A stretch of 26,397 nucleotides of DNA from Funneliformis mosseae (taxonomy: Eukaryota > Glomeromycota > Glomeromycetes > Glomerales > Glomeraceae): contig CAJVPP010000780.1 in assembly GCA_910592005.1 (NCBI GenBank), forward strand, positions 1 to 26,397, read 5' to 3'. Of the stretch, positions 15,901 to 16,230 are shown piece after piece. Both the position numbers and the translations under genes were made by a program. Under the pieces are notes generated by a model. The model was not told where the DNA came from and searched no databases. It was given only the letters and a program-made list of their open reading frames with translations. The first letter of the stretch is position 1. Every line of letters begins with the position of its first letter.

Positions 15901-16230
15901 TTTTCCAAACGTTATACTATCTGACAAAGATATGAATGAAATTGGTTACGGATAAATATAAAATTTAACATTAGGGCAACACTTTGAACTTTGTCTTATG
16001 AGTGAAGAAAGGATACGAACAATGGCCATTGATTCGAGCTTGATTATGATATACTGCATTTCGTCACCACAACTACTTGACCACCTGGAAGACTGTTCCA
16101 AAGGCTTATTTTCCATAATATTACGAGGATAATAAAAGGCAGTATATGATGAATAAGAATGAATTTCATATGGCAACTTTTCTAATGAAAGGTCAAGTTC
16201 TAATTGATTCCGTTTTTTAATGGAAAGCAT
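12938..16230 (-). CDS. MKLN1: Muskelin (kelch-repeat subunit of the CTLH ubiquitin ligase)
   Basis: Fifteen exons: 16017-16230, 15891-15920, 15733-15810, 15563-15621, 15358-15495, 15030-15297, 14909-14961, 14708-14820, 14452-14632, 14210-14376, 14018-14143, 13488-13913, 13365-13418, 13157-13302, 12938-13056. All phases agree and the product is 723 residues, close to human muskelin (735). Muskelin is a scaffold/substrate-recruiting subunit of the CTLH (GID) E3 ligase. Domains in order: discoidin-like N-terminal domain (about 20-170; [38 protein letters not shown]), LisH ([19 protein letters not shown]) and CTLH (about 174-262), six kelch repeats (about 263-620; [51 protein letters not shown]), and the muskelin C-terminal tail ending [14 protein letters not shown]. 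Intron 1 looks U12-type and intron 2 is GC-AG; both are listed separately. The family call is very secure and the exon ends are fixed by conservation and phase. Confidence 0.95.
15811..15890 (-). other. GC-AG intron 2 of muskelin
   Basis: The 80-nt intron begins GCAGGT after AATAAAG and ends AAACAG. Using the nearby GT (four bases further on) puts a stop codon just after the junction; only the GC donor joins FGKFNK to [14 protein letters not shown] in the frame that muskelin proteins require. GC-AG introns are a known minority class of major-spliceosome introns. Confidence 0.8.
15921..16016 (-). other. Putative U12-type (minor spliceosomal) intron 1 of muskelin
   Basis: This 96-nt intron starts GTATCCTTTC, an exact match to the U12 5' splice-site consensus (RTATCCTTT), and ends TTGTCAG. 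ATCCGTAAC at 15945-15953 matches the U12 branch consensus TTCCTTAAC at 7 of 9 positions including the TAAC core; its branch A is 25 nt from the 3' end, at the long end for this class. The intron has no strong polypyrimidine tract. No other intron modelled in the window has TATCC at its donor. Removing it gives [13 protein letters not shown], which follows the muskelin family pattern, so the boundary itself is secure. Confidence 0.75.

What the first reader, a model, noticed from the sequence alone, without database searches (positions are those of the whole stretch)
15921..16016. U12-type intron in a fungal muskelin gene
The donor GTATCCTTTC is a perfect minor-class 5' splice site and ATCCGTAAC is a 7/9 branch match with the TAAC core, in an intron whose borders are independently fixed by muskelin conservation. 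Most fungi have lost U12 introns. The branch-to-acceptor distance of 25 nt is long, which is the main weakness.
Basis: partly seen in the sequence, partly recalled or inferred. Interest (0 to 1): 0.85.

Follow-up and report, generated by a model that had tools for sequence, protein, structure and literature searches.

The report
Minor-class intron in fungal muskelin gene
The first intron of a muskelin gene in an arbuscular mycorrhizal fungus is very probably removed by the rare minor spliceosome, whose RNA parts are found in the same genome; such introns are already known from a related fungus, so this is one more example rather than a new kind.

Summary
Minus strand 16016-15921 is a 96-nt phase-1 intron of an intact 15-exon muskelin gene (721 aa; E 1e-214 to solved muskelin). 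Frame and the conserved block AIV|(H/Q)xITFGK fix its borders. The donor GTATCCTTTC is a perfect minor-class site and pairs with this genome's own U11 and U6atac better than any of 19 control introns; its U1 pairing is third weakest of 20. The genome holds U11, U12 and U6atac above Rfam cut-offs, U4atac just below, a zf-U11-48K match, and, in this window about 1 kb upstream, ZMAT5 (U11/U12-20K). Protein records of Funneliformis caledonium and Dentiscutata erythropus read R-I-L into the intron, as C|GTATCCTT would encode.

The branch site is weak: a 7/9 match is not discriminating (6 of 19 controls have one; P about 0.37 by chance), and 25 nt to the acceptor is twice the stated optimum.

Not new in kind: Larue and Roy (PMC10639083) predicted 205 minor introns in Rhizophagus irregularis, with all four minor snRNAs. 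I had no RNA evidence, and the genome-wide motif scan did not complete. Confidence of U12 type about 0.92; interest 0.3.

The parts
12938..16230 (-). muskelin gene, 15 coding exons, 721 aa, intact
   Evidence: exon model made by hand; phmmer to 8ttq muskelin E 1.1e-214 over residues 18-719; Muskelin_N 265.1 bits
15921..16016 (-). intron 1, U12-type candidate, 96 nt, phase 1, GT-AG
16007..16016 (-). donor GTATCCTTTC, perfect minor-class 5' splice site
   Evidence: duplex with own U11 -6.9, own U6atac -8.4, U1 -1.5 kcal/mol
15945..15953 (-). putative branch site ATCCGTAAC; 7 of 8 pairs with own U12 GUAAGGAU, one A left unpaired; 25 nt from acceptor; its TAA is also the in-frame stop if the intron is retained
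15921..15923 (-). acceptor CAG
   Evidence: fixed by frame and by conservation of (H/Q)xITFGK
16017..16230 (-). muskelin exon 1, ends ...MAIV C|
15891..15920 (-). muskelin exon 2, 30 nt, (H)SITFGKFNK(G)
15811..15890 (-). muskelin intron 2, GC-AG (GCAGGT donor), phase 1
   Evidence: the only reading I found that keeps [12 protein letters not shown] in frame
17044..17746 (-). ZMAT5 (U11/U12 snRNP 20 kDa protein) gene, 4 exons by a hand-made model, 151 aa
   Evidence: phmmer to 8r7n_E zinc finger matrin-type protein 5, E 5e-24; zf-U1 and zf-CCCH; sequence

Best explanation
Intron 1 of the muskelin gene of a Funneliformis-like fungus is a GT-AG U12-type (minor-class) intron. Inferred mechanism, from established knowledge of minor splicing: the U11/U12 di-snRNP binds the donor through U11 and the branch site through U12; U6atac, delivered with U4atac, then replaces U11 at TCCTT; an A of ATCCGTAAC left out of the U12 helix attacks the donor; exon 1 is joined to the first downstream AG, 25 nt beyond. 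If the intron were retained, translation would stop after 94 residues, at a TAA inside the branch motif. Shown here: gene structure, motifs, snRNA genes and their complementarity to the intron. Inferred: splicing itself, use of this branch site, and any effect of retention.
For: Intact gene with borders fixed by frame and conservation. Among 20 introns of three genes in the window (muskelin 14, ZMAT5 3, eIF5 3) this donor pairs best with own U11 and own U6atac (-6.9 and -8.4; next best -4.3 and -3.4), and its U1 pairing (-1.5) is third weakest. Donor log2 odds +14.7 against -24.2 to -4.4 for the 19 others. Own-genome U11 74.7 bits, U12 71.5, U6atac 80.1, all above gathering; U4atac 48.5 (gathering 53). 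Minor-spliceosome proteins: a zf-U11-48K match at C927, 34 bits, cut-off 21.1, and ZMAT5 in the window. The donor is read through as R-I-L in the F. caledonium and D. erythropus records, 2 of 126 proteins held; a U2-like donor would give R-I-L in about 1% of cases. Muskelin_N scores 265.1 bits with this splicing against 239.9 for the F. caledonium record. Own U12 has GUAAGGAU where the Rfam consensus has GUaAGGAA, so the first A of the branch motif can pair.
Against: The branch motif has G where T is expected and lies 25 nt from the acceptor against an optimum of 11-13 nt (PMC3584512 passages; PMC6717393 passages). A 7/9 match occurs in 6 of the 19 control introns. Free U12 duplex energy does not support this branch site: the best stretch of the intron with own U12 (-7.3) is another one, next to the acceptor; controls reach -6.7, and with the consensus U12 the candidate (-4.9) is bettered by several controls. 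One control, an eIF5 intron, also pairs better with U11 than with U1 (-2.4 against -1.4). No transcript evidence. No convincing second U12 intron in 214,946 bases scanned or in 10 loci scanned (five of them also), though only about 0.5 would be expected in the former at the Rhizophagus number. The zf-U11-48K family is not specific: it also rings in Sulfolobus, 1 of 14 control genomes. With lower donor likelihood ratios (100 to 1,000) the posterior would be 0.03 to 0.73.
Confidence: 0.92

Rival explanations
1. It is a U2-type intron whose donor resembles the U12 consensus by chance; the major spliceosome removes it using a weak U1 match and a degenerate branch site typical of this AT-rich genome.
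For: Minor introns are rare a priori (0.272% of annotated introns in R. irregularis). U2 donors in this gene are degenerate, including GTTTGC and a GC donor, and two controls pair with U1 as weakly as the candidate. A branch 25 nt from the acceptor would suit a U2 intron. The U12-like branch match is not significant.
Against: C at +5 occurs in 0 of the 18 GT control donors (donors listed); U1 pairing is only -1.5 kcal/mol; ATCCTTT after GT has probability about 7e-6 under the small U2 donor model; the read-through in Dentiscutata suggests that the part of the donor beyond GT is conserved.
Confidence: 0.06
2. It is a hybrid or converting intron: the donor is still minor-class but branch and acceptor have drifted toward major-class use, so either spliceosome may act on it. 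(Overlaps with the best explanation; counted here only if the major spliceosome removes a good part.)
For: Strong donor but weak branch and long branch-acceptor distance. A chytrid muskelin record (Rhizophlyctis rosea, P0060) has an insertion at the same point reading R-E-Y, which would fit a U2 donor GTGAGTA at the same position and phase, so the position may exist in both classes. Minor-to-major conversion is reported in another organism in PMC10639083.
Against: U1 pairing is poor. The Rhizophlyctis reading is inferred from one protein record without DNA.
Confidence: 0.06
3. The junction is a gene-model error and the stretch is coding or part of a different intron, as the public F. caledonium record has it.
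For: Record P0001 reads about 27 nt of it as coding (length inferred from the protein) and lacks exon 2.
Against: That reading loses the conserved SITFGK block and 25 bits of Muskelin_N score; retention meets an in-frame stop; the R. irregularis, Diversispora epigaea and Racocetra persica records have HSITFGK.
Confidence: 0.02

Closest known systems
U12-type (minor) introns of Rhizophagus irregularis (Larue and Roy 2023, PMC10639083; abstract, sections 8 and 34, section 23 part 1 of 2, and found passages read)
   Same: Glomeromycotina; donor follows the animal/plant consensus; all four minor snRNAs; ZMAT5 present; phase 1, the commonest phase of minor introns there
   Different: Another genus (Funneliformis-like). 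The survey classifies annotated introns, and in the F. caledonium record this intron is mis-annotated. Whether muskelin is among its 205 could not be checked (no supplement look-ups allowed; the word muskelin does not occur in the main text)
Canonical GT-AG U12-type introns of animals and plants (review PMC3584512, passages read)
   Same: RTATCCTTT donor, TAAC branch core (consensus recalled)
   Different: Branch to acceptor 25 nt instead of the 11-13 nt optimum; G at position 5 of the branch motif; own U12 snRNA has GGAU where the Rfam consensus has GGAA in the branch-pairing stretch

Membership tests
U12-type intron | Minor-class donor RTATCCTTT | tested here: met
   perfect 9/9; log2 odds +14.7; U11 and U6atac pairing best of 20 introns
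U12-type intron | Branch site TTCCTTRAY near the acceptor | tested here: inconclusive
   ATCCGTAAC 7/9, 7 of 8 pairs with own U12, but 7/9 also occurs in 6 of 19 controls and by chance with P 0.37; duplex energy does not pick it
U12-type intron | Branch-acceptor distance about 11-13 nt optimum (a tendency, not a strict requirement; one published classifier looks up to 40 nt upstream, PMC6717393 passages) | tested here: not met
   25 nt if ATCCGTAAC is the branch site
U12-type intron | No polypyrimidine tract before the acceptor | not tested
   CCAATTTCATTCATATCTTTGTCAG has only short T runs to the eye; not scored against controls
U12-type intron | Minor spliceosome present in the genome | tested here: met
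   U11, U12, U6atac above gathering; U4atac 48.5 against 53; zf-U11-48K match; ZMAT5
U12-type intron | Conserved position or type in relatives | tested here: inconclusive
   R-I-L read-through in 2 of 10 named glomeromycotinan records, one of them nearly the same species; no DNA of relatives was seen
U12-type intron | Spliced by U11/U12/U4atac/U6atac/U5 | not testable with these tools
   needs RNA-seq or snRNA depletion
Muskelin (MKLN1) orthologue | Muskelin_N domain plus kelch repeats, aligned over the full length | tested here: met
   residues 18-719 aligned to 8ttq muskelin, E 1.1e-214; Muskelin_N and kelch families. LisH and CTLH were not called by Pfam in this model at E 0.001
ZMAT5 / U11-U12 20K | N-terminal U1C-like finger plus CCCH finger and a C-terminal SLRxPPP...QWG tail | tested here: met
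   residues 1-78 align to ZMAT5 of 8r7n (79.8 bits); the tail aligns too but weakly (12.9 bits, i-Evalue 0.75)

The most novel reading that the evidence does not exclude
In Funneliformis the U12 snRNA branch-pairing stretch has changed from GUAAGGAA to GUAAGGAU, branch sites have followed with A at position 1, and this minor spliceosome tolerates branch-to-acceptor distances well above the animal/plant optimum, so that minor introns here are under-counted by standard classifiers and by annotation.
Probability: 0.15. Interest if true: 0.5.

Novelty: new member of a known kind. Interest (0 to 1): 0.3.

Why it matters
It adds a Funneliformis example to the minor introns of Glomeromycotina and points to a practical cost: 6 of the 9 named glomeromycotinan muskelin records that cover this junction are wrong at it, so counts of minor introns taken from annotations may be too low. 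(Errors at ordinary introns of the same records were not counted.) The weak branch site and long acceptor distance make it a useful test case for how far fungal minor introns may depart from the animal/plant rules.

Tried and rejected
Genome-wide scan for other U12 introns (pattern of donor, gap, branch site): sent 18 times as the same request and never answered, so there is no genome-specific U12 matrix, no count and no distance distribution.

Local sampling instead: 200 kb of five large contigs with L001-L005, 214,946 bases in all, gave 20 RTATCCTT, 3 with a loosely U12-like branch downstream, none convincing as an intron. DER1 and E2F_TDP gene loci, chosen from recalled lists of genes with minor introns, showed no clear U12 intron (L030 was not scanned).

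A second protein search with residues 18-110 of the F. caledonium record gave 22 proteins and no further named glomeromycotinan record; its 6 new proteins show no R-I-L.

Animal conservation: searches for MKLN1 with 'minor intron' and with 'U12-type' found no paper in this library; whether the animal gene has a U12 intron at this position is left open. Funneliformis with 'minor spliceosome': no paper. The 20 papers listed of 525 for U12-type intron/fungi/Glomeromycotina had no occurrence of 'U12-type intron'. Collections of viral, bacterial and archaeal contigs were not searched for muskelin.

Rejected: alternative donors and acceptors around the junction, read by eye, because each breaks the frame or meets a stop. 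Free duplex energy of branch candidates, because it does not discriminate. The closeness of ZMAT5 to a U12 intron as meaningful: with some 200 minor introns, about a dozen specific protein genes and a guessed 25,000 genes, roughly 0.4 such neighbourhoods per genome are expected by chance (own estimate, no call).

Full report
What is there. The minus strand of the window carries an intact muskelin gene, 16230-12938, with 15 coding exons and 721 residues in a hand-made model. It aligns with solved muskelin over residues 18-719 (8ttq, E 1.1e-214) and has the Muskelin_N and kelch families. The best database relative is a Funneliformis caledonium record, 98% identical; outside residues 72-82 only 4 residues differ (58, 414, 571 and 627). 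The host is therefore a Funneliformis-like arbuscular mycorrhizal fungus; its species is not established. The genome held is 82.0 Mb in 4,154 contigs, and the exon 1 to exon 2 region is found once in it.

The intron. Intron 1 is 16016-15921, 96 nt, phase 1: GTATCCTTTC...ATCCGTAACCAATTTCATTCATATCTTTGTCAG. Of the junctions I read by eye, only this one gives MAIV-H-SITFGK, which matches AIVQNITFGK in animal muskelin and HSITFGK in Rhizophagus irregularis, Diversispora epigaea and Racocetra persica. The next intron, 15890-15811, is a GC-AG intron needed to keep [10 protein letters not shown] in frame. Exon 2 between them is only 30 nt.

Is the donor minor-class? As a bare string it is not rare in this AT-rich DNA (1.25 expected in the window, 1 seen). 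Its position exactly at a conserved junction is what matters. I compared it with 19 other introns of muskelin, ZMAT5 and eIF5 in the window. Duplex energies for the candidate were -6.9 with own U11, -8.4 with own U6atac and -1.5 with the U1 5' end (recalled, then seen in L033 and L034); the best control values were -4.3 for U11 and -3.4 for U6atac. Two controls pair with U1 as weakly (-1.4), and one of them, in eIF5, also pairs better with U11 (-2.4) than with U1. A simple donor matrix gives +14.7 bits against -24.2 to -4.4 for the controls; its U12 side uses recalled frequencies and its U2 side was made from 18 of the same controls. Of 200,000 random GTA donors of intron composition, 11 pair as well with both U11 and U6atac. 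With a prior of 205 in 75,377 introns, donor likelihood ratios of 5,000 to 26,600 (the last being 2 to the 14.7) and branch ratios of 0.3 to 1 give 0.80 to 0.99. The same call tried ratios of 100 and 1,000, which give 0.03 to 0.73, and a branch ratio of 0.1, which gives 0.58 and 0.88 with the two high donor ratios. The read-through in relatives raises my figure to about 0.92; that last step is judgement.

The branch site is weak. ATCCGTAAC matches 7 of 9, but 7 of the 20 introns (the candidate and 6 of 19 controls) have a 7/9 match in the last 55 nt, and random sequence does so in 37% of trials; a match with both TCC and TRAY is rarer (0.8%). Duplex energy with own U12 does not pick this motif as the best stretch of the intron. 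Its distance of 25 nt is about twice the stated optimum of 11-13 nt (PMC3584512, passages read); one published classifier allows up to 40 nt (PMC6717393, passages read). One detail helps: the U12 RNA of this genome reads GUAAGGAU where the Rfam consensus reads GUaAGGAA, so the A at position 1 can pair and 7 of 8 positions pair, with one A left out. Whether branch sites across this genome follow that change is untested. If the intron is retained, translation ends after 94 residues at the TAA inside this motif.

The machinery. The same genome has U11 (74.7 bits, cut-off 39), U12 (71.5, cut-off 53), U6atac (80.1, cut-off 33) and U4atac (48.5, just under its cut-off of 53), and U1 and U2. A zf-U11-48K match (34 bits, cut-off 21.1) lies in the reading frame CPFNPAHKIPSKSFERHYRKC; the family also rings in 1 of 14 control genomes, Sulfolobus, so it is not proof of U11-48K alone. 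In the window itself, 17746-17044 on the same strand encodes ZMAT5, the U11/U12 20K protein (E 5e-24 to the chain in 8r7n).

Relatives. I saw no DNA of relatives, but protein records carry a trace. Of 10 named glomeromycotinan muskelin records among the 120 listed (of 799 found), 3 have the correct junction (P0002, P0003, P0006), 6 are wrong at it (P0001, P0004, P0005, P0008, P0018, P0046) and 1 does not cover it (P0030). Two of the six, F. caledonium and Dentiscutata erythropus, read R-I-L straight after MAIV, which is what C|GTATCCTT encodes; no other of the 126 proteins held does. An ordinary donor would give R-I-L in about 1% of cases. The other four show skipping, truncation or an apparent frame-shift of exon 2 or of the end of exon 1. 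Such records also contain errors at ordinary introns (P0018 lacks another exon), which I did not count, so the failure rate here is not shown to be higher than elsewhere. In a chytrid record, Rhizophlyctis rosea P0060, an insertion at the same point reads R-E-Y, compatible with a U2 donor GTGAGTA at the same position; this is an inference from one protein.

What is known. Larue and Roy (PMC10639083; abstract, sections 8 and 34, section 23 part 1 of 2 and found passages read) report 205 predicted minor introns in Rhizophagus irregularis, all four minor snRNAs, ZMAT5 and three other specific proteins, and no convincing minor introns in Ascomycota or Basidiomycota. The finding is thus a new member of a known kind in another genus. 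I could not check whether muskelin is on their list: supplements were closed, and the main text does not name it. Two searches for MKLN1 with minor or U12-type intron returned no paper, and none joined Funneliformis with the minor spliceosome.

Verdict. A U12-type intron is the best reading (0.92). Splicing itself, branch use and any effect of retention are inferred. The main gaps are the absence of RNA data and of a genome-wide set of U12 introns, because the pattern scan did not complete in 18 tries.

Noticed in passing
17044-17746 (minus strand): ZMAT5 (U11/U12-20K), a minor-spliceosome-specific protein gene, about 1 kb from the U12 intron; the donors of its three modelled introns are U2-like. 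Closeness probably chance.
   Followed up: yes
15811-15890 (minus strand): Muskelin intron 2 is GC-AG with donor GCAGGT, next to a 30-nt exon; together with the U12 intron this may explain why public records lose exon 2.
   Followed up: partly
12170-12757 (minus strand): YbeY-like endoribonuclease gene just downstream of muskelin, recognised by eye from its likeness to the tail of the Acaulospora morrowiae record P0005, which fuses muskelin and YbeY (Pfam YbeY in P0005); the neighbourhood seems conserved.
   Followed up: partly
L002:808-968 (minus strand): U12 snRNA branch-pairing stretch GUAAGGAU differs from the Rfam consensus GUaAGGAA.
   Followed up: partly
L004:1501-1624 (minus strand): U4atac candidate scores 48.5 bits, below the gathering score of 53, though its 5' stem and 3' end match well.
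   Followed up: no
16510-16797 (minus strand): Small Gly/Arg-rich reading frame (MSESQSPKETNLREDLPPDPD...) between muskelin and ZMAT5; its 92-aa form had no Pfam family.
   Followed up: partly
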